A stretch of 64,000 nucleotides of DNA from contig NZ_JAIUZY010000008.1 of NCBI RefSeq assembly GCF_020171625.1, forward strand, positions 124,001 to 188,000, given 5' to 3'. Position numbers and translations under genes: made by a program. Shown here piece after piece: positions 1,484 through 19,959 of this stretch; position 1 is the first letter of the stretch, and every line of letters starts with the position of its first letter. The notes below the pieces were generated by a model. The model was not told the DNA's origin. It did no database searches and worked only from the letters and a program-made list of their open reading frames with translations. The stretch comes from Salipiger bermudensis. Lineage in GTDB: Bacteria; Pseudomonadota; Alphaproteobacteria; Rhodobacterales; Rhodobacteraceae.

Positions 1484-1550
1484 CGCAGCTCCCCCTTTTC
1501 CGGACACGCCCGATGGTGTTTACAGCCCGCCAAAGGAAAGGACCAGAACC

Positions 1551-2093: not shown

Positions 2094-2147
2094 TGCGGCC
2101 CCCGCAATAGGGTCGGGCCAACGCGAATTACTCCGTCAGGGACTTAG

Positions 2148-3380: not shown

Positions 3381-3383
3381 GCC

Positions 3384-5267: not shown

Positions 5268-5272
5268 TCAGA

Positions 5273-5302
5273 GGCCAAGAATTTTAGCTAAAATTCTTGG
5301 CC
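5273..5302. repeat. Perfect 30-base AATTTTAGCTAAAATT palindrome
   Basis: Two perfectly complementary 15-base arms: GGCCAAGAATTTTAG at 5273-5287 and its reverse complement at 5288-5302. It starts 5 bases after the OmpA-like gene stop. It shares the AAGAATTTT/AAAATTCTT core of the palindromes at 457-521 and 39162-39229. A hairpin here could stop or protect the upstream transcript, but there is no U-tract after it. I treat it as one member of a dispersed palindrome family. Confidence 0.75.
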
Positions 5303-5381
5303 GCGCTCCGCCCGTCGGCAGGTCTGGCAAAATGGGCCGGCCCATGCCAGAAGCGCCGGCAACGCTCAGGAGGCCGCGCCC

Positions 5382-6251: not shown

Positions 6252-6259
6252 GCCGGGAT

Positions 6260-6282
6260 GCGCGGGGCACGCGGCCCCGCGC
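6260..6282. terminator. GC-rich hairpin between convergent serB and asparaginase genes
   Basis: Perfect 9-base arms GCGCGGGGC (6260-6268) and GCCCCGCGC (6274-6282) around ACGCG. It lies in the 41-base gap between two genes that end toward each other, so it could act for both. No T-run follows, so classical intrinsic termination is uncertain. Confidence 0.4.
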
Positions 6283-6292
6283 CCCCGATGTT

Positions 6293-7291
6293 TCACGGGA
6301 AGCTGGGCGCCGTCGCGATGCGGCCGACCTCGATGCCGGCGCGGTTGTGGATCGGCGGGCAGAGAAAGCGCTGCACCTCCGGATCGGCCGCGTCGAGCAC
6401 CCCGAGCTGCACCAGCAGCGCCGCCACGGCGCAGTCGGAGGCGCGGGTGGCGCCGTCGGTGATCTTCAGCGCCAGCCCCAGTCCGCGCTGCGGCAGGATG
6501 GCCACGAAATAGCCCTCGGCCCCGGTCTTGATCGCCACCGGCTCCTTGGCCGCGCGCATCAGGTGGGTGCAGGCGCGGCCCTCGCCCGCGACATGCTCGG
6601 GGAAGGCAATCATCGCCTCGACGAGCTGCGCCGCGGCCTGGCTCAGCGCGTCGGGGCGCTTGTGGGCGCTGGCGTACCACGCCATGGCGCGGGCCATGCC
6701 CTCCATCGTGCTGGCGAAGTTCGGCGCCGAGCAGCCGTCGATGCCGAAGCCCGGGCTTTCCATGCCGGTCACGGTCTCGAAAAGCGCGCGCACCTCGCGC
6801 TGCACCGGGTGGCCGGGATCGCAATATTCTGCGTCCCCGCCGAGGTGCTTGTTGTAGGTCAGGAAGCCGGCGTGCTTGCCCGAGCAGTTGTTGTGCGCCT
6901 GGCAGGGACACTTGCCTTCGCGGATCATCTCGAGCTTCAGGGCCTTGTCGCGCGACGCCTCGGGGCCGCAGCGCAGGTCGTCATCGCCGAGGCCAAGCTC
7001 GGCCAGCCACGCTGTGACCGCCTCGACATGCAGGAGCGCGCCCTGATGCGAGGCGCAGGCCAGTGCCAGCTGCGCGGGCGTCAGGCCGAACGCCTTTGCC
7101 GCGCCCGAAGCGACCAACGGCAGCGCCTGGATCATCTTGGCCGAGCTGCGCGGCAGGATCACCTTGCCGGGGTCACCCCAGGCCTGCACGATCTGGCCGC
7201 TGTCGTCGCAGATCACCGCGTGACCGGAATGGGCGCTTTCGGCCAGAGGCCCGCGGTGGATTTCGACCATCAGTTCGGGCGCGTTCGACAT
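6293..7291 (-). CDS. L-asparaginase II family protein
   Basis: A 332-residue protein of the L-asparaginase II family (PF06089), distinct from classical AnsA/AnsB, expected to hydrolyse asparagine or a related amide to the acid plus ammonia. The motif NCSGKHAGFLTYNKH and the downstream segment DGCSAPNFASTM are characteristic, and the C-terminal LCPPIHNRAGIEVG block ends the fold. I chose the ATG at 7291 because GAAGGA lies at good spacing before it; the frame extends upstream to 7327 without added support. It is divergent from the IalB-like gene and convergent with serB. Family call is good; the physiological substrate is not shown by sequence. Confidence 0.85.
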   Translation of the reverse strand: MSNAPELMVEIHRGPLAESAHSGHAVICDDSGQIVQAWGDPGKVILPRSSAKMIQALPLVASGAAKAFGLTPAQLALACASHQGALLHVEAVTAWLAELGLGDDDLRCGPEASRDKALKLEMIREGKCPCQAHNNCSGKHAGFLTYNKHLGGDAEYCDPGHPVQREVRALFETVTGMESPGFGIDGCSAPNFASTMEGMARAMAWYASAHKRPDALSQAAAQLVEAMIAFPEHVAGEGRACTHLMRAAKEPVAIKTGAEGYFVAILPQRGLGLALKITDGATRASDCAVAALLVQLGVLDAADPEVQRFLCPPIHNRAGIEVGRIATAPSFP

Positions 7292-7465
7292 GCTCGGATC
7301 CTTCACAACTAAGCGATATCTTGCCAACAGGGGGTTTATGGCGGCAGGTTTTTCAGTCTATCTTCCCGACGTCGAGTAGAAAATCGGAAGCGCGCGCGAT
7401 TGGGCCGAAACCGGCCGGGCGCCGACCGCGTGATTGAGGCACAAGACAGCTGGAGGCTGCACGGT

Positions 7466-7996
7466 ATGAAATCAATTCTCGGTGGAGTTCTTGGCGGAGC
7501 CCTGCTGGCGCTGACAACCACGGCAGCGCTCGCTCAGGAAGAGAGCCAGAACCGGGTCAACGCGATCACCGACTGGTCTGTGTTCGAGGGCAGTGACCCG
7601 CGCGAATGCTGGGCCGTCACCACCTACAAGGAAAGCGTGAACTCCAAGGATGGCCGCGTCGTCTCGGTGCGCCGCGGCGACATCCTTCTGATGGTGTTCT
7701 ACCGTCCCGAGGGCGGGGTGAACGGTCAGGTGGCCTTCACCGGCGGCTATCCCTTCGCGCCCGGCTCGACGGTCGGCGTGAACATCGGCGGCTCGGAGTT
7801 CGAGCTTTACTCCGATGGCGAATGGGCCTGGCCGGCCACCTCGGGTGACGATGCCAAGATCATCGCCGCGATGAAGCGTGGCTCAGACGCGGTGCTGACC
7901 GCGCGCTCGGCCCGTGGCACCCAGACCAAGGACACCTTCTCGCTGCTGGGCTTCACCGCCGCGGTGGAAGACGCCCAGAAGCGCTGCGCCGGCTGA
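7466..7996 (+). CDS. Invasion-associated locus B (IalB) family secreted protein
   Basis: A 176-residue protein with a clear Sec signal peptide: MKSILGGVLGGALLAL, then cleavage after about residue 23 (ALA|QEES). The mature part has the IalB-family layout, with the early Cys in RECWAV and the C-terminal Cys (KRCAG) able to form a disulfide, a beta-rich core, and the helical DDAKIIAAMKRGSDA segment. IalB-like proteins are widespread in free-living alphaproteobacteria, so the name does not imply virulence here; the function is unproved. The start at 7466 follows TGGAGG. A strong intrinsic terminator lies 26 bases after the stop, so this is likely a single-gene transcript. Confidence 0.82.
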   Translation: MKSILGGVLGGALLALTTTAALAQEESQNRVNAITDWSVFEGSDPRECWAVTTYKESVNSKDGRVVSVRRGDILLMVFYRPEGGVNGQVAFTGGYPFAPGSTVGVNIGGSEFELYSDGEWAWPATSGDDAKIIAAMKRGSDAVLTARSARGTQTKDTFSLLGFTAAVEDAQKRCAG

Positions 7997-8021
7997 GCCG
8001 CGCGCCAGCCTGACAGAGATC

Positions 8022-8056
8022 AAAGCCCCTCGCAGGATGCTGCGGGGGGCTTTTTC
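8022..8056 (+). terminator. Rho-independent terminator after the IalB-like gene
   Basis: Hairpin arms AGCCCCTCGCAG and CTGCGGGGGGCT around GATG, followed by TTTTT. Stem strength and T-run are those of a classical intrinsic terminator. It also insulates the IalB-like gene from the oppositely directed LuxR-type gene that ends at 8077. Confidence 0.85.
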
Positions 8057-8076
8057 GTGCCTGCTCGTGGGGGTGT

Positions 8077-8880
8077 TCAGAACTCCAGCGAGGACAGCAT
8101 CGGCATCATCAGCGAGAACAGCTCCGCCTGCGAGGAGATCTCGCACTTGCGGTAGAGCTGCTTGCGGAACACCTTCACGGTCTGCGGGCTGATCTCGAGC
8201 CGCATGGCGATCGAGGCCGAGCTGTGCCCCTTGAGAATCAGCAGCGCGATCTCGGCCTGTCGCCCGGTGAGCGCCACGCCATGCTCCTGCACCATGCGCT
8301 TCTGCAGCGCCTCGGTGACGGCGGAATCTCGGAAATCGCCGGTCGAGCGCAGGTTCGACCAGTGCCGCGCCACCAGCGCACAGGCGATCGGCGCGATCTG
8401 CTCGGCGCGCTCCATGTCGCGCGAGGAGAACACCCGCCCCGAGCTGGCATCGCGCCCGAGGCAGATGTGCACCGACACGCCTTCGGACGGGTAGGCGACA
8501 TAGGCGACCTCGTCGATCAGCGTGGTGCGCCGGTAATAGGCCGAGAAATATTCGTTGCGGGTGAACTGGTCGGGCGCGATGTCGCGCATCCGGTAAAGCC
8601 CCTCGGGTGCCCGCTCGATGTGCAGGGCATGGAACGGATCGAGCAGATAGGCCCCGGTGAGGTAGTCGTCCTCGAGCTTTTCGTGGACACGCTTTTCCCG
8701 CGCATGGGAAAACAGAAGCTCGGGCGGGCGGTTCTGGAAATAGGCCAGCATGGTGGTGTTGTCGATTTCGTAGCAGCGCATCAGCCACTGGAAGAACAGG
8801 CCGGCAAACGCCTCGGTTTCGAGCGCCGAGATGGCACGCCCAAGGAAATTCTCCGTCAGGTTCGGCAGTTTCCGCATCAT
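8077..8880 (-). CDS. LuxR-family transcriptional regulator of the adjoining transport/catabolic island
   Basis: A 267-residue regulator. Residues about 195-255 form a LuxR/GerE helix-turn-helix (LTGRQAEIALLILKGHSSAS, then QTVKVFRKQLYRKC). The N-terminal 190 residues look like an effector-binding domain but match no domain I can name: there is no phospho-acceptor receiver and no evident autoinducer signature. Two adjacent ATGs at 8880 and 8877 follow AGAGAGGT; either could be used. The gene is divergent from the polyamine-type ABC operon starting at 8992. The 111-base gap between them holds a perfect GGTATATACC-type palindrome and further half-sites, so this protein is the likely controller of that operon and of itself. 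Regulation of the island is inferred from position. Confidence 0.85.
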   Translation of the reverse strand: MMRKLPNLTENFLGRAISALETEAFAGLFFQWLMRCYEIDNTTMLAYFQNRPPELLFSHAREKRVHEKLEDDYLTGAYLLDPFHALHIERAPEGLYRMRDIAPDQFTRNEYFSAYYRRTTLIDEVAYVAYPSEGVSVHICLGRDASSGRVFSSRDMERAEQIAPIACALVARHWSNLRSTGDFRDSAVTEALQKRMVQEHGVALTGRQAEIALLILKGHSSASIAMRLEISPQTVKVFRKQLYRKCEISSQAELFSLMMPMLSSLEF

Positions 8881-8888
8881 ACCTCTCT

Positions 8889-8949
8889 GGGGGTATATAC
8901 CCCCTGAATGACCTCTGCCTAGGTTATACCCAATAGAACGGGTGGTATA
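8889..8949. promoter_or_regulatory. Operator array (TATACC/GGTATA palindromes) between luxR-type gene and ABC operon
   Basis: A perfect 16-base palindrome GGGGGTATATACCCCC at 8889-8904 is followed by TATACCC at 8925-8931 and GGGTGGTATA at 8940-8949, an imperfect inverted pair of the same half-site. Two dyads of one motif in a divergent intergenic region next to a regulator gene are a typical operator layout. The first dyad sits just upstream of the regulator's own ribosome site and may mediate autoregulation. The binding protein is inferred. Confidence 0.55.
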
Positions 8950-8991
8950 GCTCGAAACAGGGACAATAGCTGCAGGGGGTGGTTCGGCATC

Positions 8992-10058
<1,067 letters not shown>

Positions 10059-10059
<1 letters not shown>

Positions 10060-10979
10060 TGGCGGCGATGGCGCCGGGCGGCGCATCTTCGTCGGAGATC
10101 TACAAGGGCCACGCCAAGCGGCTGCTGTTGCCGACATGGCTGGTCATCGGGGTCTTCCTGCTGGTCCCGGTGGCGCTGATGGCGACCTATTCGGTCCTCA
10201 CCAAGGAATTCCGCGGCGGCGTGATCTGGGAGTTCTCGCTCGCCGCCTATGACCAGTTCTTCCTCGACCGCGGCCTGTTCGGAGACGAGCCGCCGCGCAT
10301 CGAATGGACCTATCTCACCATCTTCTGGCGCTCGATCTGGCAGGCCGGGCTGGCAACGCTCCTCTGCCTGCTGATCGGCTTTCCGACCGCGTGGTTCATC
10401 GCCACTCGCGACGCCCGGATGCGCACGGTCTGGCTGCTCATCGTCACCGTGCCCTATTGGGTCAACCTGCTGATCCGCACAGTGTCGATGAAGTTCCTGA
10501 TCCGCGACGAGGGCCCGCTCAACGCGGTGCTGCTCTGGAGCGGGCTGATCGACCAGCCGTTGGGGCTGATCAACACCAACCTCGCGGTGCAGCTGGGGCT
10601 GTTCTACTCCTACCTGCCGTTCATGGTGCTGCCGATCTACGCCGCGGTCGAGCGCTACGACTTCGCGCTCTCCGAGGCGGCGGCGGATCTCTATGCCGGG
10701 CGCTGGACGACGCTGCGGCTGGTGATCCTGCCGGTGGTCAGGCCGGGGCTCATCGCGGGCTGCATCCTCGTCTTCGTGCCCTCGCTCGGCGCCTTTCTCG
10801 CGCCCGATCTGCTGGGCGGCGCCAAGAGCTTCATGATCGGCTCGCTGATCGAAGAGCAGTTCAAGGGCGCCGCCGGCAACTGGCCCTTCGGGGCCGCGGC
10901 GGCGATGATCCTGATGAGCATCGTGATGGTGGTGCTGCTGGTCTATGCCCGCGCGCAGACCCGGGAGGCCACGGCATGA
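10059..10979 (+). CDS. potB: Polyamine-type ABC transporter permease (PotB-like)
   Basis: A 306-residue inner-membrane permease with about six membrane helices; the first, [20 protein letters not shown], follows a short cytoplasmic N-terminus. The EAA loop [20 protein letters not shown], which docks on the ATPase, is present near residue 205-225 and is followed by LPVVRPGL. The ATG at 10059 overlaps the PotA stop and the last codons overlap the next permease start by 4 bases (ATGA). It pairs with the downstream PotC-like permease to make the heterodimeric channel. Confidence 0.88.
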
Positions 10980-11788
10980 AGCAGCTCGACCTGCGCCGCT
11001 TCCCCGGCTTCTTCGCGATCACGCTGCTCTGCGTGGTGGTGCTTTACGCACCGCTGCTGGTGGTTTCGGTCTACAGCTTCAACGCCTCGACTTCGATCAC
11101 CAGCTGGGGCGGCGCCTCGCTCGCGTGGTATGTCGACGTGTTCACCGGGCCGGAGTCGCCGAAATTCCAGCGCGCGGCGATGAACTCGCTGATCATCGCG
11201 GTGCTGGCCGGGATCTGCGCCACTCTGATCGCCACCTCGGCGGCGGTGGCGATGCACCGGGCCGGGCGCTTCCGGGGCAAGACCGCCACCTTCGCGCTGA
11301 TCAACCTGCCGCTCATGGTGCCCGAGGTGGTGACCGCCGTCGCCAGCCTGATCTTCTTCACCGCCATCGGATTCTCGGGCGGGATCGGGACGATCCTGCT
11401 GGCCCATATCACCTTCTGCATCCCCTTCGCCTACCTGCCGATCGCGGCGCGGATGCAGAGCGTGCCCGACAGCTACGAGCAGGCGGCGATGGATCTCTAC
11501 GCCACCCCGTGGGAGGCGTTCCGGCTGATCCTGCTGCCGCTGATGATGCCCGGCATCTTCTCGGGCTTCCTGCTCGCCTTCATCATCTCGCTCGACGACT
11601 TCCTGATCACCAACTTCGTGAAGGGCGCCGGGGTCGAGACCTTGCCGACCGCCATCTTCGGCGCGGTGAAACAGGGCATCAAGCCCAACATCATGGCGAT
11701 CTCCACCCTGATGCTCGCCGTCTCGGTGGTGTTCGTCACCCTCTCCTGGCTGATCGGACGCAGCGGCCAGGCAAAGAAAACAGAATGA
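10976..11788 (+). CDS. potC: Polyamine-type ABC transporter permease (PotC-like)
   Basis: A 270-residue inner-membrane permease, second half of the importer channel. It starts [12 protein letters not shown] and has about six membrane helices. The EAA motif [20 protein letters not shown], then PLMMPGI, is clear near residues 165-190. The start at 10976 overlaps the PotB stop by 4 bases. The short gap to the binding-protein gene holds a GGAGA ribosome site. Confidence 0.88.
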
Positions 11789-11808
11789 CCCAACAGCGGA
11801 GACACCCC

Positions 11809-12834
11809 ATGAAGAAGATCCTTGTTCCCTCCCTGATCGCGCTGGCCGCCGCCTCGGCGGCGCAGGCCGAGGGCGAGCTGAAGCTCTACAACTGGTTCGA
11901 GTACATGCCGCAGGAGCTGCTCGACAAGTTCACCGAAGAAACCGGCATCACGGTCACGATGGACACCTATGACAGCAACGAGGCGCTGCTGGCCTCGCTC
12001 AAGGCCGGACGGCTCGGGGCCTACGATCTCGCGGTGCCGGGCGACTACATGGTCAAGATCCTCGCCGATGAGGGGATGCTCGACACCTTCACCCCCGAGG
12101 AGCTGACGAACTACGGCAACATCGAGGAGCAGTGGATCGATGTGCCCTTCGACGAGGGCCGCAAGAGTTCGGTGCCCTACCAGTGGGGCTCGACCTCGTT
12201 CGCGGTGAACCGCGAGGTGTTCGACGGCGACATCCAGACCACCGGCATCATCTTCGAGCCGCCCGAAGCGCTGAAGGGCAAGATCAACGTGCTCGACACC
12301 GCGGGCGAAACCCTGACGCTGGCCTCGCTGCATCTGGGCATCCCGCAATGCAGCTCGGACCGCGAACAGCTCAAGGCGCTGAACGCGCTGGTGACCGAGG
12401 CCAAGGCCGACTGGGCGTCCTTCGGATCGGACGTGGCCAAGGACGTGCTGGTCTCGGGCGATGCGGCTGCGGGCATGATCTGGTCGGGCTTCGCCGCCAA
12501 GGCCCGCGGCGAGGGCGCGCCGATCGAGTATGCCTTCCCGAAAGAGGGCGTCATCGTCTGGATGGACAACATCGCGCTGCTGAAGGACGCGCCGAACCGC
12601 GACAACGCACTGGCGTTCATGGACTTCATGCTCGAGCCCGAGAACGCCGCCGCGCTGACCAACTTCGCGCAGTATTCCGCAGGCGTCGGGGGCGTGACCG
12701 AGTTCCTCGATCCCGAGGTCGCCAATTCGCCCGAGTCGAACCCGCCGGAAGGCACCGACACCGTCTTCGTCGAGGCCTGCCCGGAAGAGGTTCAGGTGCT
12801 CTACGACGCGATCTGGACCAACCTCAAGAAGTAA
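11809..12834 (+). CDS. potD: Polyamine-type ABC transporter periplasmic binding protein (PotD-like)
   Basis: A 341-residue periplasmic binding protein. It starts MKKILVPSLIALAAASAAQA, a Sec signal peptide cut near residue 20, and continues LKLYNWFEYMP, the hallmark beginning of mature PotD/PotF proteins. I chose the ATG at 11809 because of the signal peptide and GGAGA upstream; an ATG at 11785 overlaps the PotC stop but would put eight residues before the signal. PotD-like proteins bind putrescine, spermidine or related amines. The binding-site residues differ enough within the family that the ligand cannot be read here. The catabolic genes follow at once, so the ligand is probably their substrate. 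Confidence 0.88.
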   Translation: MKKILVPSLIALAAASAAQAEGELKLYNWFEYMPQELLDKFTEETGITVTMDTYDSNEALLASLKAGRLGAYDLAVPGDYMVKILADEGMLDTFTPEELTNYGNIEEQWIDVPFDEGRKSSVPYQWGSTSFAVNREVFDGDIQTTGIIFEPPEALKGKINVLDTAGETLTLASLHLGIPQCSSDREQLKALNALVTEAKADWASFGSDVAKDVLVSGDAAAGMIWSGFAAKARGEGAPIEYAFPKEGVIVWMDNIALLKDAPNRDNALAFMDFMLEPENAAALTNFAQYSAGVGGVTEFLDPEVANSPESNPPEGTDTVFVEACPEEVQVLYDAIWTNLKK

Positions 12835-12843
12835 GCCCAACGC

Positions 12844-13611
12844 ATGAAACTCGCGCTTTATCAGGGCCCCGCGATCAGCGGGGCCACAGAGGAGACGTTT
12901 GCCTGCGTCTCCACCCAGCTCACCGCCGCCGCCGCCGCGGGGGCCACCATGCTGGTCATGCCCGAGCTGTTCCTGCCGGGCTACAACCAGCCTGCCCTGC
13001 ATGACCGGCTGTCGCAGCCGCGCGGCGGCGCATGGGAGAGCCGGCTGGCTGGCATGGCCCGCGAAGCGGGCTGCGGTCTGACCATCGGCTGGGCCGAGCG
13101 CGAGGGCGATACGGTCTACAACGCCGCCACCGCCTTCGGGGCGGATGGCGGCGTGCTCGGGCATTATCGCAAGATCCAGCTCTTCGGGCCGATGGAGCAG
13201 GCGTCCTTCGCGCCCGGAGACGCCTACTGCACCTTCGAGCTGGGCGGCCTGAAGGCGGCCCTGCTGATCTGCTACGACGTGGAGTTTGCACCGCATGTGC
13301 GGGCGCTGGCCGAGCAGGGCGTCAGCCTCATCCTCGTGCCGACCGCCAACGCGGTGGGATTCGACCACGTGCAGCGCGCCACGGTGCCGGGCCGCGCCGC
13401 CGAGCTCGGCCTCACCATCGTCTACGCCAATTACTGCGGCCTCGAGGACGGGCTGGCTTTCGGAGGCCTGTCGCTGATCGCAGACCCGCTGGGCCAGCCG
13501 ATGGTCTCTGCCGGGCGCGGCGAGGCGCTGCTCGTCGCCGATCTGGGCGTGAACGACGACCTGCCCAAGCCCTCTCTCTCCACCCAACTCGCTGATTTCC
13601 GGGAGCTCTGA
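12844..13611 (+). CDS. Carbon-nitrogen hydrolase (nitrilase-superfamily amidohydrolase)
   Basis: A 255-residue cytosolic amidohydrolase with the complete Glu-Lys-Cys triad of the nitrilase fold: Glu in MPELFLPGYN (near residue 41), Lys in GHYRKIQLFGP (near 114), and Cys in LICYDVEFAPH (near 144). The architecture fits the omega-amidase/N-carbamoylputrescine-amidase group more than true nitrilases, so it likely releases ammonia or an acyl group from an amide. It starts 9 bases after the PotD stop and ends 2 bases before the aminotransferase start, clearly within the same operon. A role in hydrolysing an amide intermediate of the imported compound is inferred. Confidence 0.87.
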   Translation: MKLALYQGPAISGATEETFACVSTQLTAAAAAGATMLVMPELFLPGYNQPALHDRLSQPRGGAWESRLAGMAREAGCGLTIGWAEREGDTVYNAATAFGADGGVLGHYRKIQLFGPMEQASFAPGDAYCTFELGGLKAALLICYDVEFAPHVRALAEQGVSLILVPTANAVGFDHVQRATVPGRAAELGLTIVYANYCGLEDGLAFGGLSLIADPLGQPMVSAGRGEALLVADLGVNDDLPKPSLSTQLADFREL

Positions 13612-13613
13612 CC

Positions 13614-14978
13614 ATGACCTTCGATCTGCCCAAGACCACCGACGACATCCTCACCGAGGACGTGCACCTCGTGCAGTCCTTCGCCGATCTCAACGCGCTC
13701 AAGCAGGACGGCGCGCGCACCGCCATCGTCGGCGCCGAGGGCAGCATGGTCACCGACAGCGAGGGCAACGAGCTGATCGATGGGATCGGCGGGCTGTGGT
13801 GCGTCAACGTCGGCCACAAGCGCCGCGAGATCATCGATGCGATCCACCAACAGCTCGAGACGCTGGATTTCTACTCGACCTTCTACAGCTTCACCCACCC
13901 GACCGCGGCGGCGCTCGCCGCCAAGCTGGCCGAGCTGGCGCCGGGATCGCTCAACAAGGTGCATTTCGGCAATTCAGGCTCGGTCGCCAATGACAGCGCG
14001 GTGCGCATCCTGCACCACTATTACCAGCGCCTCGGCCAGCCCCAGAAGCGCAAGGTGCTGAGCCGCCACGGCGCCTATCATGGCTCCACCCACCTCGCCA
14101 TCGCCATGACCACGCCGGAATATTCCGAGGGCTGGCACAAGGCCGAGGGCATCGTGCACCACCTTCGCAAGCCGCATTACTGGCGCGAGGGAGATGGCAT
14201 GACCGAGGCCGAGTTCACCGACGCGCTGCTCGACGACATGAAGACCGAGATCGAGAGCCTCGGCGCCGAGAACATCGCCTGCTTCATCGGTGAGCCGATC
14301 ATGGGCGCGGGCGGGGTGATCGTGCCGCCTGAGGGCTATCACGCCCGCGTCGCGGATCTCTGCCGCGACTACGAGATCAAGGTGATCTCGGACGAGGTGG
14401 TGACGGCGTTCGGGCGGCTCGGGCATTTCTTCGCCTCGAAGGACGTGTTCGGGTTCCAGCCCGACATCATCACCACGGCCAAGGGGCTGACCTCCGGATA
14501 TCAGCCGCTCTCGGCGACGATCCTGTCGGACGAGATCCACGAGGTGATCTCGGGGCCCGGCGGCATGTTCCTGCACGGCATGACCTATTCCGGCCATCCC
14601 GCCGCCTCGGCCGCGGGGCTCGCCAACATCGCGCTGATGGAGCGGGACCAGATTCCGCAGACCGCGCGCAGCACGGGCAAGCTCTTCGAGACCACGCTCA
14701 AGGGCCTCGGGGATCTCGATATCGTAGGCGAGGTGCGCGGCAGCCACTTCATGATCGGCATCGAGTTCGTCAGGGACAAGGCCAGCAAGGAGATCTTCGA
14801 CCCGAGCCTCAACATCGGCCTCAGGGTGGCGCAGAAGTGCCAGGAGAAGGGGCTGATCGCCCGTCCGCTGGGACATATCCTGATCTTGTCGCCGACGCTG
14901 ATCCTCACGCCCGAGCAGATCGCCACGATCGGGGCCATCCTGCGCGAGAGCATCACCGAGGTGATGGCGGAGTTGTGA
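13614..14978 (+). CDS. Class III pyridoxal-phosphate aminotransferase
   Basis: A 454-residue fold-type I aminotransferase of the omega-amino-acid:pyruvate or polyamine:pyruvate kind. HFGNSGSVANDSAVRI gives the phosphate-binding region, ISDEVVTAFGRLG carries the cofactor Asp, and TTAKGLTSGYQP contains the Schiff-base Lys near residue 289. Length and motifs match SpuC-like and beta-alanine aminotransferases. Most likely it moves a terminal amino group from the imported amine to pyruvate or another oxo acid. It lies 2 bases after the amidohydrolase gene. A 300-base gap separates it from the Rieske oxygenase gene. The exact amino donor is unknown. Confidence 0.88.
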   Translation: MTFDLPKTTDDILTEDVHLVQSFADLNALKQDGARTAIVGAEGSMVTDSEGNELIDGIGGLWCVNVGHKRREIIDAIHQQLETLDFYSTFYSFTHPTAAALAAKLAELAPGSLNKVHFGNSGSVANDSAVRILHHYYQRLGQPQKRKVLSRHGAYHGSTHLAIAMTTPEYSEGWHKAEGIVHHLRKPHYWREGDGMTEAEFTDALLDDMKTEIESLGAENIACFIGEPIMGAGGVIVPPEGYHARVADLCRDYEIKVISDEVVTAFGRLGHFFASKDVFGFQPDIITTAKGLTSGYQPLSATILSDEIHEVISGPGGMFLHGMTYSGHPAASAAGLANIALMERDQIPQTARSTGKLFETTLKGLGDLDIVGEVRGSHFMIGIEFVRDKASKEIFDPSLNIGLRVAQKCQEKGLIARPLGHILILSPTLILTPEQIATIGAILRESITEVMAEL

Positions 14979-15278
14979 CCTCGGTGGGCTTGGGCTTTGC
15001 CCGGTTCCGGGTATTCCACCGACAGGCGTCTGAGCCTTAGGCTTTTCCTAATTGCAGCGTCGGAAGGCTGTTCTTTTCCCGAAGCAATGGCTCTGCCACT
15101 CTCGACGCTGATCGCCGCTCCGGCTCGACCCCGGGGCGGCGATGTCTGGTCCGGCGCCCGCCCACCGCATCGATCTGTGCGAGAGGCTTGACCGGCGGCG
15201 ATCCAGGTTCGACGAAAGAGGTCTCGACCCGGCGGCGGGCACGTCCGTCTCCGGCGCGAGTGGCAGGGAAGCACGACG
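14979..15278. other. Intergenic gap between aminotransferase and Rieske oxygenase genes
   Basis: 300 bases with no convincing gene on either strand. A short dyad AGCCTTAGGCT at about 15033-15043 is followed by TTTT and might weakly terminate the upstream transcript. The second half should carry the promoter and leader of the Rieske-to-ArgE unit. I see no clear -35/-10 pair and no copy of the TATACC operator. Confidence 0.5.
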
Positions 15279-16403
15279 ATGAACATTCACGACCCCGCAG
15301 CAGAACTCCGCGCCAACGTGGCCACCCCCTTCGAAGCCGCACAGGCGATGCCGGTCTCGGTCTACACCAGCGAGGATTTCCTCGCGCTGGAGCAGGAGCA
15401 TGTGTTTGCCAAGAGCTGGCTCTGCGCCGGCCGCGCCGATGCGCTCAAGGCCCCGGGCGACTACCTGACCATGGAGATTGCCGGCGAGCCGGTGATCGTG
15501 CTGCGCGACCGCGAGGGCACACTGCGCGCCATGTCCAACGTCTGCCGCCACCGGATGTCGATCCTGCTGGAAGGGCGCGGCAACGTGCGCGCCATCACCT
15601 GCCCCTACCACGCCTGGACCTACAATCTCGACGGCAGCCTGCGCGGGGCGCCCGCGATGGAGATGAACCGGAGTTTCTGCAAGGCCGAGACCAGCCTGCC
15701 GGAGGTGCGCTGCGTCGACTGGAAGGGCTGGATCATGCTGACGCTCGATCCCGACCTGCCCGAGCCGCACGAGACGCTTCGCGAGATCGACGACCTCGTC
15801 GGCTACCTGCCGATGCAGGACTATGTCGAGGTGTTCCGCGAGGAGCATCACTGGAACACCAATTGGAAGATCCTCGCCGAGAATTTCATGGAAAGCTACC
15901 ACCTGCCGATGTGCCATGGCGGCACCATCGGCGGGGCGGTGGATCTGAAGAAGATGACCTGCCCCGAGGGCTATCCCGGCTTCAACTTCCACCACATCCT
16001 CAAGGATGACAGCATCGCGCTGTCGATCGCCCACAAGGGCAACACCGCGCTCAAGGGCGAGGACCGCTACCGCACCTGGCTGATCTCGGTCTACCCGTCG
16101 CTGATGATCACGCTGACGCCGGGCTATTTCTGGTACCTCAGCCTGACGCCGGACGGCCCCGGCCACGTCAAGATCATCTATGGCGGCGGGCTGCATCCCG
16201 ATTTCGCCGCCGATGCCGAGGTGGATCAGCATTTCGAGACCCTCAAGGGCCTGCTTGACCACGTCAACGACGAGGACAAGGGCTGCACAGAGCGGGTCTG
16301 GCGGGGAATGCAGTCGCGCCACGCGTTGCCGGGTGCGTTGTCGCATCTCGAGCGCCCGAACTATGAGTTCGCCACGTGGATCGCCGGCAAGATCCCGACC
16401 TGA
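15279..16403 (+). CDS. Rieske non-heme iron oxygenase, alpha subunit (quaternary-ammonium type)
   Basis: A 374-residue oxygenase component. The N-terminal Rieske [2Fe-2S] motif is complete: C89, H91, C108 and H111 (CRHRM and CPYHAW). The catalytic iron site shows H208 and H213 (YHLPMCH), with an acidic NDEDKG cluster near 331-334 able to supply the third ligand. Residue 205, where most Rieske oxygenases have a bridging Asp, is Glu. That is reported for carnitine (CntA) and glycine-betaine-type oxygenases, which cleave C-N bonds or N-demethylate. Length also matches that group. No ferredoxin reductase gene lies in the island, so electrons must come from elsewhere. The substrate class is inferred, not proved. 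Confidence 0.87.
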   Translation: MNIHDPAAELRANVATPFEAAQAMPVSVYTSEDFLALEQEHVFAKSWLCAGRADALKAPGDYLTMEIAGEPVIVLRDREGTLRAMSNVCRHRMSILLEGRGNVRAITCPYHAWTYNLDGSLRGAPAMEMNRSFCKAETSLPEVRCVDWKGWIMLTLDPDLPEPHETLREIDDLVGYLPMQDYVEVFREEHHWNTNWKILAENFMESYHLPMCHGGTIGGAVDLKKMTCPEGYPGFNFHHILKDDSIALSIAHKGNTALKGEDRYRTWLISVYPSLMITLTPGYFWYLSLTPDGPGHVKIIYGGGLHPDFAADAEVDQHFETLKGLLDHVNDEDKGCTERVWRGMQSRHALPGALSHLERPNYEFATWIAGKIPT

Positions 16404-16469
16404 GGCGCCGTGCCCGACCGGCTCGCGCGGCCCCGCAGGGCGCGAAAGACTGACCAACAAGAGGACCAC

Positions 16470-16886
16470 ATGGCCCATACCCGCATCCGCCCGTTCAACA
16501 CCAAGGACACCTACCCGGAGCAGAAGCTCGACAACGATCTTGCGCAGGCCGTGGTCACCCGGGGCGGTCGCACCGTCTGGCTGCGTGGCCAGTGCCCGCA
16601 GAACCTCGACGATGCCAGGAACATCGATAGTCACGATCCGGTCGAGCAGACCCACAAGGTGATGCAGAACATCCGCCAGCTGATCGAGGAGGCCGGCGGC
16701 TCGATGGAGCATCTGGTCAAGGTGGTGGTCTACATCACCGACGTGCGCCACCGCGAGGCGGTCTACCGCACGATGGGAGAGTATATCAAAGGCGTGCACC
16801 CGGTCTCGACCGGGCTGGTGGTGCAGGCGCTGGCGCGACCCGAATGGCTGGTCGAGATCGACGGCACGGCGGTGATCCCCGACTGA
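16470..16886 (+). CDS. RidA family protein (enamine/imine deaminase)
   Basis: A 138-residue RidA/YjgF-family protein. Such trimers hydrolyse reactive enamines and imines to oxo compounds and ammonia. The conserved C-terminal segment ALARPEWLVEIDGTAVIPD has the active-site Arg and Glu, and GHV-type central features (VVVYITDVRHREAVYRTM) fit. I chose the ATG at 16470 because AGAGGA precedes it and the family N-terminus (THIRPFNT-like) starts there. It sits between the Rieske oxygenase and DUF1028 genes. In this setting it would clear imines made by oxidative dealkylation or transamination. Confidence 0.87.
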   Translation: MAHTRIRPFNTKDTYPEQKLDNDLAQAVVTRGGRTVWLRGQCPQNLDDARNIDSHDPVEQTHKVMQNIRQLIEEAGGSMEHLVKVVVYITDVRHREAVYRTMGEYIKGVHPVSTGLVVQALARPEWLVEIDGTAVIPD

Positions 16887-16923
16887 GCCCGCGCCGGACG
16901 AACGACAGACCCAAGGAGACCAC

Positions 16924-17601
16924 ATGACGTTTTCCCTCGTGGCGCGCTGCGCCAAGACCGGCCAGTTCGGCGTGGCGATCTCGTCCTCGTCTCCGGCGGT
17001 GGCGGCGCGCTGCGCCTATGCCCGCGCCGGGGTGGGGGCGGTGGCCTCGCAGAACGTCACCGACCCGCGGCTCGGGCCGTGGGCGATTGATCTGATGGCG
17101 GAGGGCGCCAGCGCCGAGGCAGCGATCAGGACGCTGCAGGACAGCGCCGATCACATGGCCTACCGGCAGGTGCTGGCAGTGGACGGGCAGGGCGGCACGG
17201 CGATCCATTCCGGGCCGAACTCGCTGGGCATCTGGACACAGGCGCAGGGGCGCGACGTGGCGGCGGGCGGCAACCTGCTGGCCAATGACCGCGTGCCGCA
17301 GGCCATCGTCGACGGCTTCGAGGCGGCCACCGGCGCGCTGGGCGACCGGCTCATCGCGGCGATGCGCGCCGGGCTCGCGGCGGGCGGCGAGGCGGGGCCG
17401 GTGCATTCCGCCGGGCTGCTGATCGTCGACCGCGAGTGCTGGCCCTATGCCGAGCTGCGCTGCGACTGGATCGACGACGGCTGCCCGATCGAGGCCATCG
17501 CGCGCGCGTGGGAGGTCTACCAGCCGCAGGCGGTGGATTATGTCACCCGCGCACTCGATCCGTCTGCCGCGCCCTCCTACGGCGTGCCGGGGGACGCGTG
17601 A
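16924..17601 (+). CDS. DUF1028 family protein (putative Ntn-type hydrolase)
   Basis: A 225-residue protein of the DUF1028 family, which has been likened to Ntn hydrolases but has no settled activity. The N-terminus MTFSLVARCAKTGQFGVAIS, the SSSPAVAARCAYAR block and the SQNVTDPRLG segment are characteristic. It starts after AAGGAG (about 16913-16918). Its stop codon shares a base with the ATG of the ArgE-like deacylase, so the two are translationally coupled and probably act in sequence. DUF1028 genes are often found next to amidohydrolases and RidA proteins. A hydrolytic step on an amide or cyclic intermediate is plausible but unproved. Confidence 0.83.
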   Translation: MTFSLVARCAKTGQFGVAISSSSPAVAARCAYARAGVGAVASQNVTDPRLGPWAIDLMAEGASAEAAIRTLQDSADHMAYRQVLAVDGQGGTAIHSGPNSLGIWTQAQGRDVAAGGNLLANDRVPQAIVDGFEAATGALGDRLIAAMRAGLAAGGEAGPVHSAGLLIVDRECWPYAELRCDWIDDGCPIEAIARAWEVYQPQAVDYVTRALDPSAAPSYGVPGDA

Positions 17602-18683
17602 TGCGGGTGCTCGAGCTGCTCGACCGGCTCATCGCCTTCCCGACGGTGTCATCCGAGAGCAACCTCGCGCTGATCGATTGGGCGCAGGCCCATCTCGAGG
17701 CTTGCGGCTTTGCCGTCACCCGCGTGCCCTCGCCCTGCGGCGAGAAGGCGGGGCTGATCGCCAATCGTGGCGGGGCGGGCGGCGTGGTGCTCTCGGGTCA
17801 CACCGACGTGGTGCCGGCCGAAGGTCAGTCATGGACCCGCGACCCCTTCAAGCTGACGCGCGACGGCGCGCGGCTCTATGGGCGCGGCACCGCCGACATG
17901 AAGGGTTTCGTGGCCTGCGCGCTGGCACTGGCCGAGCAGCCCGCCGCGGCGCAGGGGCCGGTGTCGATCGTGCTGTCTTGGGACGAGGAGGTGGGCTGCC
18001 GGGGCATCCCGGAGATGATCCCCCACCTAGCGGCAGCGCTAGGACCACAATCACTGTGCGTGGTGGGCGAGCCGACCTCGCTGGTGATGGCGACGGGCCA
18101 CAAGGGCAAAGCGGCCTATCGCGCCACCTGCCACGGCGAGGCCGGGCACTCGGCGATGGCGCCGCAGTTCCGCAACGCGCTGCACGGGGCCTGCGATCTG
18201 GTGGCAAACATCCGGGCCGAGCAGGCGCGGCTGATGCGCCACGGCGCGCAGGACGCGGGCTACGACGTGCCCTGCTCGACCCTGCACGTGGGCAAGATGC
18301 AGGGCGGCACGGCGCTCAACATCGTGCCCGACCGCGCCACCGTCGACTGGGAGATCCGGCATCTCGCCGCCGAAACGCCGGACGAGATCGTGCCGCGGGT
18401 CATGGCAGGCCTCGCGCATGTCGAGCTGGAACAGGTGTTCGCCTATCCCGGCCTCGACACCGATCCCGACCAGCCGGCGTTGGCGCGGCTGCGCGGGCTG
18501 GCGCGCGGGGTGTGCAAGGTGTCCTACGGCACCGAGGCGGGGGTGTTCGCACCGACCGGCATTCCCACCGTGGTCTGCGGGCCGGGCGACATGGCGCAGG
18601 GCCATCAGCCGGACGAGTTCATCGAACTCGACCAGCTTACCGGCTGCATGGAGATGCTCGAGGCGCTGGTGGCGCGGGGCTGA
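17601..18683 (+). CDS. argE: Acetylornithine-deacetylase-like M20 metallohydrolase
   Basis: A 360-residue zinc amidohydrolase of the ArgE subfamily. Metal and catalytic motifs are in order: SGHTDVVPAEGQSW (near residue 60-73), GRGTADMKGFVA (near 94-105), SWDEEVGCRGIPE with the catalytic Glu (near 126), and GEPTSLVMATGHKG. The dimerisation domain and the C-terminal GPGDMAQGHQPDEF with the last ligand His follow. Translation starts at ATG 17601, overlapping the DUF1028 stop. Although annotated as ArgE by similarity, its place at the end of the catabolic island suggests a substrate-specific N-deacylase instead of an arginine-synthesis enzyme. It ends 2 bases from the convergent glycosyltransferase gene. 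Confidence 0.85.
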   Translation: MRVLELLDRLIAFPTVSSESNLALIDWAQAHLEACGFAVTRVPSPCGEKAGLIANRGGAGGVVLSGHTDVVPAEGQSWTRDPFKLTRDGARLYGRGTADMKGFVACALALAEQPAAAQGPVSIVLSWDEEVGCRGIPEMIPHLAAALGPQSLCVVGEPTSLVMATGHKGKAAYRATCHGEAGHSAMAPQFRNALHGACDLVANIRAEQARLMRHGAQDAGYDVPCSTLHVGKMQGGTALNIVPDRATVDWEIRHLAAETPDEIVPRVMAGLAHVELEQVFAYPGLDTDPDQPALARLRGLARGVCKVSYGTEAGVFAPTGIPTVVCGPGDMAQGHQPDEFIELDQLTGCMEMLEALVARG

Positions 18684-18685
18684 GC

Positions 18686-19387
18686 TCAGACCCGTCGGCT
18701 GCGCAGCGCCACCACCTGCCGCATGGTCTCGGTCGGCGGCACGGTGCGGAAGATGTCGCCCAACATGGCGATGTCGGCGCGCAGACCGTCGATCCAGCCA
18801 CCGCGCTTGGCGTGTTTGTAGGGGCTTTCGACCTCAGGCCAGCGCACGATGGCGATGTGCAGCCCCTCGGCCAGCCACAGCCGGTTTATGAACACCTCGA
18901 GCCCGAAGCGCGGCAGGTTGAGCAGCGCCTCGGTCTGGTTCGCCAGCAAACGGCGCGGCATGACGCGCTCGCCCGAGATGTAGTCGATGCCGATCATCCG
19001 CCAGATCAGCGGCGCGTTGCGGCGCAGGCTGATCGTGGCCTCGGCGCGGTGCTCCAACACCGGCAGGATCAGGGCGCTGAGATGCTCGGGCCCGAGGCCG
19101 AGCAGGTCGCTGTCGAGCAGCAGGACATGGCTGCCGCGCGCCTCGGTGATGCCGCGGGTCACGGCGCGGGTCTTGCCGCCGTTGCGCGGCTGGCGCACCA
19201 CCCGAAGCGCCGGGGCTTCCTGCCCCCGCGCCTCGGCGGCCTCTGCGGTGCCGTCGGAGGAGCCGTCATCGACCACGATGACCTCGTCGATCAGCGCGTG
19301 GCCGAGCACCGCATCCAGCACCGCGCCGATGCGCGGGGCCTCGTTATAGGCCGGGATGATGCAGGAGATGGACAGCGCGCCGGTCAT
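18686..19387 (-). CDS. Family 2 glycosyltransferase
   Basis: A 233-residue GT-A fold transferase. It opens with LSISCIIPAYNEAPRIGAVL, has the nucleotide-sugar motif VVDDGSSDGTAEAA and the DxD-type LLLDSDLLGL near residue 95. There is no obvious membrane anchor. The ATG at 19387 overlaps the stop of the DedA gene by 4 bases, so it is translationally coupled and last in the four-gene operon starting at 21914. Donor and acceptor are unknown. Because the operon also holds a ceramide-glucosyltransferase-like enzyme and an LpxH-like phosphoesterase, a lipid acceptor is a fair guess. Confidence 0.85.
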   Translation of the reverse strand: MTGALSISCIIPAYNEAPRIGAVLDAVLGHALIDEVIVVDDGSSDGTAEAAEARGQEAPALRVVRQPRNGGKTRAVTRGITEARGSHVLLLDSDLLGLGPEHLSALILPVLEHRAEATISLRRNAPLIWRMIGIDYISGERVMPRRLLANQTEALLNLPRFGLEVFINRLWLAEGLHIAIVRWPEVESPYKHAKRGGWIDGLRADIAMLGDIFRTVPPTETMRQVVALRSRRV

Positions 19388-19956
19388 TTCTGTGTCGTCC
19401 TCTTGAGAATCCAGGCGATGCCGCCCAACACCAGAACGCCCAGCAGCAGCAATGAGATCCGCGCGATCCAGTCGTCGATCCGGGAATAGGCGGCGCCGAA
19501 GGCGTAGCCGATGACCACGAAGAACAGGCTCTTGGGGATGGTGGCGAGCAGGTTGACCCAGAAAAAGCGCAAGAGCGGCATCCTGGCGAGCCCGGCCGCC
19601 ACCAGCACCGCCGCTCCGGCGGAATGGGTGATCTTGCCCAGCACCAGCGTGCGCGCGCCGTGACTTTCGAAATGCCCCGAGACCTGCGCCAGCCGCGCCC
19701 GGCTCAGCCCCATGCGGTAGCGCCAGCGCAGCGGCAGGCGGTGCAGGCCCCAGCGCCCGAGCGCGTAGAACAGCAGGTCTCCGAACAGATCGGCAAGGAT
19801 CACCACCACGCTGACGCTCCAGACGTCGAGCAGACCACGGCTTGCCAGCCACGCCGCGATCACCGTGACGATCGGTCCCTCGAGCACCGCGATCGGTGCG
19901 AGGATGGCCAGCCCGTTCTTGGCGAGCAGGGCGGTGACGGTTTCCAGTCCGAACAA
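19384..19956 (-). CDS. DedA family membrane protein
   Basis: A 190-residue DedA/VTT-type inner-membrane protein with about five hydrophobic segments. The family block from LVLGKITHSAGAAVLVAAGL through WVNLLATIPKSLFFVVIGYA is clear. DedA proteins act as lipid flippases or scramblases in several bacteria. The polar residues typical of them (Glu in LEGPIVTVIAAWLASRG, Lys in GKITH) are visible. It begins 3 bases after the GT21-like gene and overlaps the GT2 gene. Moving a lipid intermediate of the flanking glycosyltransferases across the membrane is a reasonable inference. Confidence 0.82.
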   Translation of the reverse strand: MFGLETVTALLAKNGLAILAPIAVLEGPIVTVIAAWLASRGLLDVWSVSVVVILADLFGDLLFYALGRWGLHRLPLRWRYRMGLSRARLAQVSGHFESHGARTLVLGKITHSAGAAVLVAAGLARMPLLRFFWVNLLATIPKSLFFVVIGYAFGAAYSRIDDWIARISLLLLGVLVLGGIAWILKRTTQK

Positions 19957-19959
19957 GGC

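What the first reader, a model, noticed from the sequence alone, without database searches (positions are those of the whole stretch)
8077..18683. Undescribed catabolic island for a cationic or N-methylated nitrogen compound
Seen in sequence: a divergent LuxR regulator and operator, a four-gene polyamine-type ABC importer, then a nitrilase-fold amidohydrolase, class III aminotransferase, Rieske oxygenase, RidA, DUF1028 and an ArgE-type deacylase, all on one strand and mostly overlapping or nearly so. From family knowledge: these are uptake, oxidation, imine clearance, transamination and amide or acyl hydrolysis functions. Inference: together they take in and strip nitrogen from one substrate. 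The set does not match ectoine, carnitine, glycine betaine or putrescine clusters that I know, so the pathway and ligand are open. Marine methylated amines, pyridine betaines and acylated polyamines are candidates.
Basis: partly seen in the sequence, partly recalled or inferred. Interest (0 to 1): 0.75.

Follow-up and report, generated by a model that had tools for sequence, protein, structure and literature searches.

The report
Marine bacterial histamine-eating gene cluster
The gene island most likely lets a marine bacterium take up histamine and break it down to aspartate; its core is a known pathway, but it uses a different importer and first enzyme and carries an extra oxygenase, common among its relatives, whose target (perhaps methylated histamine-like compounds) is not known.

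Summary
The genes are as described, except for a 300-base gap between aminotransferase and Rieske gene. The island is not an unknown pathway. RidA–DUF1028–ArgE matches hinL–hinH–hinG of the histamine (hin) pathway, which turns imidazole-4-acetate into aspartate; a hinF homolog with a LysR gene beside it lies on another contig. Around relatives of the island's amidase, 13 of 24 loci hold histamine dehydrogenase, 3 this aminotransferase, 8 neither and 0 both, at the same position in several; so the aminotransferase most likely deaminates histamine and PotABCD imports it. Some relatives carry both halves in one stretch. The LuxR palindrome is conserved in 11 of 11 loci; PotD has lost one acidic polyamine-site residue in 19 of 19. 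Unexplained are the Rieske oxygenase and the nitrilase-fold amidase. The Rieske protein resembles quaternary-ammonium oxygenases (CntA, stachydrine demethylase), occurs in 49 of 68 hinF-bearing genomes of the family sample, and was not seen in the seven Pseudomonas- or Burkholderiales-type hin stretches read. Boldest open reading: it feeds N-methylated histamine or imidazole compounds into the pathway. New variant of a known kind. Nothing here was tested by experiment.

The parts
8077..8880 (-). LuxR-family regulator (GerE DNA-binding domain), divergent from the importer operon; start codon inferred
   Evidence: PF00196, 3.2e-12; homologs beside PotABCD in relatives
8889..8904 (.). palindromic operator GGGGGTATATACCCCC between LuxR and PotA
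   Evidence: conserved at 15 or 16 of 16 bases in 11 of 11 loci
8992..10059 (+). PotA-type ABC ATPase (GTG start)
10059..10979 (+). PotB-type permease
10976..11788 (+). PotC-type permease
11809..12834 (+). PotD-type binding protein, proposed histamine binder
   Evidence: E. coli PotD D168 is S/T and T35 is F in 19 of 19 members
12844..13611 (+). nitrilase-fold amidase (Nit); homologs beside HinK-type regulators in Pseudomonas-type loci and beside the HinF homolog in some relatives; substrate open
13614..14978 (+). class III aminotransferase, proposed histamine aminotransferase (in the place that histamine dehydrogenase has in several relatives)
14979..15278 (+). 300-base gap between the two halves; no hinF remnant found; one terminator-like site at 15054-15071 (4 sites found in the region scanned, 3.4 expected)
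15279..16403 (+). Rieske oxygenase of the quaternary-ammonium (CntA / stachydrine demethylase) type: bridging Glu205, ligands H208, H213, D333
16470..16886 (+). RidA-family protein, HinL homolog
16924..17601 (+). DUF1028 protein, HinH homolog
17601..18683 (+). ArgE/M20 deacylase, HinG homolog

Best explanation
The island is a histamine uptake and catabolism cluster, a variant of the Pseudomonas hin system. Inferred route: the LuxR regulator controls PotABCD through the palindrome at 8889-8904; PotABCD imports histamine; the class III aminotransferase converts histamine to imidazole acetaldehyde (the step done by histamine dehydrogenase in many relatives and by HinC in Pseudomonas); an aldehyde dehydrogenase encoded elsewhere gives imidazole-4-acetate; HinF (flavin monooxygenase, on contig C4 of this genome, beside a LysR gene) oxidises the ring; HinL (RidA), HinH (DUF1028) and HinG (ArgE type) hydrolyse the product through formylaspartate to aspartate. 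The Rieske oxygenase and the nitrilase-fold amidase are accessory entries into the same hub; their substrates are not known. Shown here: gene content, synteny, homology, co-occurrence, operator conservation. Inferred: every reaction and the regulation.
For: (1) Published passages: hin2 = hinFLHG turns imidazole-4-acetic acid into aspartate; HinF is a FAD-monooxygenase (EC 1.14.13.5), HinL an enamine deaminase, HinH an amidase, HinG an amidase (EC 3.5.1.8). (2) FMO-RidA-DUF1028-ArgE in exactly that order, next to a LysR 80% (L199), 82% (L203) or 87% (L200) identical to the P. aeruginosa chain of PDB 6m5f. (3) The window genome has the FMO (67%) with a LysR beside it on contig C4. (4) The core module occurs with histamine dehydrogenase (8 of 80 Rieske loci; L071 protein against PDB 6de6: 1274 bits). 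In the 198-genome family sample 36 of 37 histamine dehydrogenase genomes, 8 of 8 aminotransferase genomes and 49 of 54 Rieske genomes also have the FMO, which 68 of 198 genomes have. (5) Among 24 Nit-centred loci 13 have histamine dehydrogenase, 3 the aminotransferase, 0 both; histamine dehydrogenase follows Nit directly in 7 of the 13 (L217, L219, L221, L224, L225, L227, L229), where L208, L212 and L214 have the aminotransferase. (6) Seven of the 8 aminotransferase loci read, the window included, lie beside Pot genes or hin genes. (7) One-stretch versions: L224 FMO-Rieske-RidA-DUF1028-LysR-LuxR-PotABCD-Nit-histamine dehydrogenase; L233 aminotransferase-LuxR-FMO-Rieske-RidA-DUF1028-LysR-ArgE-PotD. 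(8) PotD has S/T for D168 in 19 of 19.
Against: The aminotransferase is not the ortholog of the Pseudomonas-type aminotransferase beside HinK: it is only the fourth best match in its own genome (36%; a gene on C5 has 52%). No clear HinD ortholog (best 45%). No histamine dehydrogenase in this genome (best 31%). hinF is not in the window. The ArgE-type protein passes NCBI's cut-off for acetylornithine deacetylase (331.7 against 297.7 bits), so sequence models alone would not call it HinG; annotated relatives in FMO-RidA-DUF1028 clusters carry the same argE name. Eight of 24 Nit loci have neither first-step enzyme, and 7 have none of histamine dehydrogenase, aminotransferase, FMO, RidA or DUF1028 in the stretch held. 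25 of 68 FMO genomes have neither first-step enzyme at the cut-offs used, and one genome (G009) has both. 17 of 49 well-flanked Rieske loci have none of FMO, RidA, DUF1028 or ArgE nearby. The hin proteins of P. putida U and PAO1 themselves were not fetched. No experiment.
Confidence: 0.82

Rival explanations
1. Homarine (N-methylpicolinate) catabolism: the Rieske-bearing module (FMO, Rieske, RidA, DUF1028, ArgE, LysR) is a homarine operon that ends in N-methylglutamate.
For: A 2026 paper reports a conserved homarine pathway in environmental bacteria, and Mgd is said to take part; I saw it only as a citation. I recall (from no call) an operon of five enzymes and a regulator, the same number as the six-gene core of L118. 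The Rieske protein is of the onium type.
Against: The same FMO family stands with histamine dehydrogenase and HinK-type regulators, also in Rieske-bearing clusters (L071, L215, L224). In the FMO tree the Rieske-linked proteins are not one clade: at least 5 changes are forced by well-supported branches. The gene content of the homarine operon could not be read, so this rival is not excluded.
Confidence: 0.08
2. Polyamine (putrescine or agmatine type) uptake and catabolism: PotABCD, putrescine-pyruvate type aminotransferase and a carbamoylputrescine-amidase-like enzyme.
For: Best named matches of PotA, PotB, PotD, the aminotransferase and, in part, the amidase include polyamine proteins.
Against: D168 of E. 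coli PotD is S/T in 19 of 19; the same Pot-Nit module goes with histamine dehydrogenase in relatives; the polyamine models for PotA, PotB, PotD and the amidase score below their curated cut-offs (PotC was not given to that call); RidA-DUF1028-ArgE have no place in a polyamine route known to me.
Confidence: 0.06
3. Two unrelated operons side by side: LuxR-PotABCD-Nit-aminotransferase for one amine, and Rieske-RidA-DUF1028-ArgE for another compound.
For: A 300-base gap separates the halves; in L034 the first half is next to the Rieske gene only; in most of the 80 named loci Pot-Nit-aminotransferase relatives at the cut-offs used are not near the Rieske gene.
Against: The halves are joined in L224, L226, L229, L231 and L233 and co-occur across genomes (22 of 24 Nit genomes have the FMO).
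Confidence: 0.1

Closest known systems
Histamine degradation (hin) genes of Pseudomonas putida U / P. aeruginosa (hinFLHG, hinACD, hinK)
   Same: hinL-hinH-hinG homologs in the same order; a hinF homolog with a LysR gene elsewhere in the genome; a class III aminotransferase for the first step; a Nit homolog also lies beside the HinK-type gene in three Pseudomonas-type stretches (L200, L202, L204)
   Different: hinF and the LysR gene are on another contig; an ABC importer of Pot type under a LuxR regulator instead of the HinA permease; a non-orthologous aminotransferase; an added Rieske oxygenase
Histamine dehydrogenase (PDB 6de6, 3k30)
   Same: in seven of the relatives read it occupies the aminotransferase's place directly after Nit
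   Different: absent from this genome (best match 31%)
Quaternary-ammonium Rieske monooxygenases: CntA (carnitine), Stc2 (stachydrine demethylase), GbcA (glycine betaine)
   Same: fold (TM about 0.8), bridging Glu, 2-His-1-carboxylate site; GbcA is the best NCBIfam match, far below its cut-off (140 against 670 bits)
   Different: 23-24% identity in the fold alignment to CntA and Stc2; no reductase gene in the island; genomic context is histamine, not betaine, catabolism
E. coli PotABCD spermidine importer
   Same: gene set and fold family; W34, E36, Y37, Y85, E171, S211, W255, D257, Y293 kept in the window PotD
   Different: D168 to T and T35 to F in the window protein; D168 to S/T and T35 to F in all 19

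Membership tests
hin histamine catabolic system | hinL-hinH-hinG (RidA, DUF1028, ArgE type) in order | tested here: met
   published order
hin histamine catabolic system | hinF FAD-monooxygenase in the genome | tested here: met
   G000:C4:336769-338004, 67% to the L118 protein, not in the window
hin histamine catabolic system | HinK-type LysR regulator | tested here: inconclusive
   LysR beside hinF on C4, 45% to the core LysR, whose best PDB matches are 6m5f/3fzv (170 bits, next 92); that these two entries are HinK is recalled; the island itself carries LuxR instead
hin histamine catabolic system | HinC aminotransferase ortholog | tested here: not met
   fourth best hit of the Pseudomonas-type aminotransferase in this genome; it may work like HinC (position)
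hin histamine catabolic system | HinD aldehyde dehydrogenase | tested here: inconclusive
   eight ALDH matches at E 1e-80 or better, best 45%
hin histamine catabolic system | HinA permease | not tested
   an ABC importer stands in the island; no genome-wide search for HinA was made
hin histamine catabolic system | growth on histamine; imidazole-4-acetate as intermediate | not testable with these tools
   needs culture and LC-MS
Quaternary-ammonium Rieske monooxygenase (CntA/Stc2 type) | Rieske CxH/CxxH motif and 2-His-1-carboxylate iron site | tested here: met
   C89, H91, C108, H111, H208, H213, D333 in 81 of 81 sequences
Quaternary-ammonium Rieske monooxygenase (CntA/Stc2 type) | Glu in place of the bridging Asp | tested here: met
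   E205 in 81 of 81, aligned with Glu of CntA and Stc2; that this is the bridging position is recalled
Quaternary-ammonium Rieske monooxygenase (CntA/Stc2 type) | cognate reductase gene nearby | tested here: not met
   none among the genes of the island
Quaternary-ammonium Rieske monooxygenase (CntA/Stc2 type) | acts on an N-methylated onium substrate | not testable with these tools
   needs enzyme assay
PotABCD polyamine importer | acidic residues that bind the polyamine amines | tested here: inconclusive
   D168 lost in 19 of 19, but E36, E171 and D257 kept in 19 of 19; the roles of these residues are recalled

The most novel reading that the evidence does not exclude
The Rieske oxygenase is a dedicated enzyme for N-methylated imidazole compounds: it removes N-methyl groups from, or cleaves the C-N bond of, a methylated histamine or imidazole acetate (for example tele-methylhistamine or methylimidazole acetate, trimethylhistamine, or the marine betaine zooanemonin, recalled to be 1,3-dimethylimidazolium-4-acetate), and so feeds methylated histamine-like nitrogen into the hin pathway. 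It would be a widespread undescribed entry route in Rhodobacterales and Burkholderiales, with a second Rieske gene in tandem in some loci for a second methyl group.
Probability: 0.38. Interest if true: 0.7.

Novelty: new variant of a known kind. Interest (0 to 1): 0.52.

Why it matters
It gives a concrete, testable function to a gene set that annotation calls 'polyamine transporter, Rieske, DUF1028, acetylornithine deacetylase'. It ties DUF1028, still described as a family of unknown function in the Pfam copy used, to the imidazole-acetate pathway. It suggests that histamine, and perhaps its methylated relatives, are nutrients for about a third of the family genomes sampled (68 of 198 carry the hinF homolog). 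The oxygenase that goes with it in 49 of these 68 has no known substrate.

Tried and rejected
Homarine was my first idea (recalled operon of five enzymes and a regulator); the defining paper is not held, the name homABCDER gave 0 papers, and the histamine dehydrogenase and HinK links then pointed elsewhere. Polyamine catabolism: rejected as main reading (rivals). DUF1028, Rieske and RidA together in the literature: nothing to the point among 20 listed of 29 papers with two of the terms, and 'DUF1028' alone is in 0 papers of the library. Papers that link Rieske enzymes with histamine: Rieske and zooanemonin occur 0 times in each of the 25 listed of 311 papers that hold two of the five terms; the rest were not seen. 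All paper searches made; no claim that the Rieske link is unpublished goes beyond these. A hinF remnant in the 300-base gap: none. Promoter and terminator scan: not above chance. Second look by VIA-align: library not on hand. Aminotransferase as HinC ortholog: rejected.

Cut-offs and rows dropped: the genome sets were copied by hand at FMO at least 59%, Rieske at least 54% (G036 at 41% dropped; partial matches G009 and G166 kept), histamine dehydrogenase at least 65% (weaker relatives of 42-56% dropped, among them G014 and G059 at 55-56%, G038 at 54% and G070 at 47%; G036 kept although partial with a stop), aminotransferase at least 65%, Nit at least 46%. Genomes of one family are related, so the Fisher p-values overstate. 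In the tree the label 'no Rieske' means only that none lies in the stretch held (often 1.5 kb). Of the 24 Nit-centred loci one (L211) showed no Nit at the 42% cut-off used there.
Full report
Observation. The window lies in a 4.74-Mb genome whose Rieske protein is 94% identical to that of the one other genome of its genus in the family sample and 90% to Salipiger thiooxidans. The genes run without large gaps except for 300 bases between aminotransferase and Rieske gene. The palindrome GGGGGTATATACCCCC at 8889-8904 is unique in the window and conserved (15 or 16 of 16 bases) in all 11 LuxR-PotA spacers examined; 8 of the 11 also have a half-site 51-52 bases on, two (L033, L208) have one at 31 bases, and the window has none by the pattern used.

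What recurs elsewhere. Among 80 named loci around the closest Rieske relatives, the recurrent neighbours were DUF1028 (32 loci), RidA (30), ArgE type (28) and a flavin monooxygenase, FMO (27), besides LysR and ABC genes. Of the 49 loci with at least 9 kb on both sides, 16 have all four of these and 17 none. Annotated plasmids show compact forms: FMO-Rieske-RidA-DUF1028-LysR-ArgE in Tropicibacter; the same genes in two divergent groups in Caballeronia and Paraburkholderia, in one of the four records without ArgE; and forms without Rieske: FMO-RidA-DUF1028-ArgE in a row in Klebsiella, Mycolicibacterium and Ideonella, with more genes between or another order in Acetobacter, Leisingera and Paracoccus. 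Three of the plasmid records looked at, with Rieske relatives of 38-59%, list no RidA, DUF1028 or ArgE near it. So the widest unit is FMO-RidA-DUF1028-ArgE; the Rieske gene is an addition.

Identification of the core. Two papers, seen in passages, describe the histamine pathway of Pseudomonas: hinFLHG converts imidazole-4-acetic acid to aspartate (PMC8231116); HinF is a FAD-monooxygenase EC 1.14.13.5, HinL an enamine deaminase, HinH and HinG amidases, HinG with EC 3.5.1.8, HinI an aspartate ammonia-lyase (PMC6467879). I recall that these EC numbers are imidazoleacetate 4-monooxygenase and formylaspartate deformylase. The order is that of FMO-RidA-DUF1028-ArgE. The LysR of the core matches the PDB chains 6m5f and 3fzv at 170 bits, the next chain at 92; that these are HinK (PA0218) is recalled. 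Used as a query, that chain found proteins of 80-89% in seven of 17 chosen genomes, 35-59% in the other ten. In L199, L200 and L203 it lies right beside FMO-RidA-DUF1028-ArgE. In L200 and L202 it also lies beside a homolog of the window's amidase (43 and 38%), an aldehyde dehydrogenase (my reading of the translations) and a class III aminotransferase; in L204 the amidase and aminotransferase homologs are present too, in L205 the aminotransferase only. Leisingera has the core next to an annotated aspartate ammonia-lyase gene, the next step of the published route. Against a simple reading by model: the window's ArgE-type protein passes the NCBIfam cut-off for acetylornithine deacetylase, and the ArgE-type genes of annotated hin-like clusters bear that name too.

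The missing pieces in this genome. HinF is on contig C4, with a LysR of 45% to the core LysR beside it. There is no histamine dehydrogenase (best 31%). Aldehyde dehydrogenases are many, none clearly HinD.

The first half of the island. One gene family of the Rieske loci, found in 8 of 80, is histamine dehydrogenase: the L071 protein scores 1274 bits against PDB 6de6 over its whole length. I then read 24 loci around Nit relatives in the family sample. Pot genes are present in 16, LuxR in 9, histamine dehydrogenase in 13, the aminotransferase in 3, both first-step enzymes in none, neither in 8. Histamine dehydrogenase follows Nit directly in seven (L217, L219, L221, L224, L225, L227, L229; L219 is cut before PotA and L221 shows no Pot genes), lies at the other end of the Pot genes in four (L206, L207, L218, L231) and within the hin core in two (L213, L215). 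In L208 (same genus) and L214 the aminotransferase follows Nit directly, in L212 after about 1 kb, as in the window. In L235 and L236 it follows PotABCD without Nit. Seven of 24 Nit loci showed none of the hin-type genes tested. In 198 family genomes 8 have the aminotransferase and all 8 have the FMO; 37 have histamine dehydrogenase and 36 of these have the FMO; one genome (G009) has both first-step enzymes; within the 68 FMO genomes they avoid each other (1 shared, p = 0.018) though over all 198 they do not (p = 0.54). The exchange at one position is the main argument that the aminotransferase acts on histamine and that PotABCD imports it. One-stretch forms exist: L224 (FMO-Rieske-RidA-DUF1028-LysR-LuxR-PotABCD-Nit-histamine dehydrogenase) and L233 (aminotransferase-LuxR-FMO-Rieske-RidA-DUF1028-LysR-ArgE-PotD). 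One of the 8 aminotransferase loci (L234) has no such neighbours in the stretch held. Against orthology with HinC: the aminotransferase of L202 has a better match (52%) elsewhere in this genome than the window gene (36%).

PotD. Against E. coli PotD, the PotD proteins of these loci keep W34, E36, Y37, E171, S211, W255, D257 and Y293 in 19 of 19, but D168 is Ser or Thr and T35 is Phe in 19 of 19. That these E. coli residues line the polyamine site is recalled. A pocket with one acid fewer and one aromatic more suits a monoamine with an aromatic ring better than a polyamine; this is inference.

The Rieske oxygenase. The model (mean pLDDT 93.6) is nearest to CntA and stachydrine demethylase (Foldseek ranks 1-17, TM about 0.8, 23-24% identity), as is the sequence. 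Glu205 aligns with the Glu of CntA and Stc2 at the position of the usual bridging Asp (recalled) and is kept in 81 of 81 relatives. No Rieske match was found in the seven Pseudomonas- or Burkholderiales-type stretches of 15-18 kb read. It is present in 49 of 68 FMO genomes (18.5 expected), and within these it is independent of histamine dehydrogenase (24 of 36, p = 0.42), so it does not look like a substitute for the first step; nor for HinF, since 49 of 54 Rieske genomes keep HinF (5 do not). In the FMO tree the Rieske-linked proteins need 7 changes (at least 5 on well-supported branches) and mix with histamine dehydrogenase-linked ones, which speaks for one FMO function throughout. Ten of 80 loci have a second Rieske gene. 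The simplest role is an oxidative demethylase or C-N cleaving oxygenase that makes histamine, imidazole acetaldehyde or imidazole acetate from an N-methylated precursor. This is a guess about the substrate.

The amidase is the second open part. It recurs beside HinK-type regulators, beside HinF (L213, L215) and after PotD. Candidates are imidazole acetamide or N-acylhistamines. Nothing here decides.

Verdict. Core already known, arrangement and accessory genes a new variant, one common enzyme without a substrate.

Noticed in passing
L152 (Klebsiella pneumoniae plasmid pSJ25_1) 4837-13513; L153 (Acetobacter pomorum plasmid) 9171-18591: Plasmid-borne hinFLHG-like modules with a cytosine-permease family gene, a GMC oxidoreductase and an aldehyde dehydrogenase; 234 of 72,556 plasmid records hold an FMO match at E 1e-90 or better, 105 of them Klebsiella. 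An alcohol such as histaminol could be the entry compound (guess).
   Followed up: no
L121 (G000:C4:327500-347000), 1469-8181: Next to hinF in this genome: genes that read like HyuA/HyuB hydantoinase, an isochorismatase-family hydrolase, a PEP-mutase/isocitrate-lyase type and a FAD oxidoreductase (my reading of the translations; no family search).
   Followed up: no
L200 6396-7196; L202 7100-8026: In Pseudomonas-type genomes a nitrilase-fold amidase gene sits between the hinK-type gene and the aldehyde dehydrogenase / aminotransferase genes; the hin gene lists that I read do not include it.
   Followed up: partly
L064, L065, L068, L077, L078, L079, L081, L093, L110, L111: A second Rieske oxygenase (31-34% identical to the first) shortly after the Rieske or DUF1028 gene; the family was counted in 10 of 80 loci.
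   Followed up: partly
L149 (Parasedimentitalea marina plasmid) 11983-21073: Rieske relative (59%) beside a second SRPBCC/Rieske-type gene, two FAD oxidoreductases and an aminomethyltransferase-family gene, a context that suggests N-methyl groups.
   Followed up: no
window 6293-7327: Asparaginase-II-like gene upstream of the island (read from the translation; not tested).
   Followed up: no
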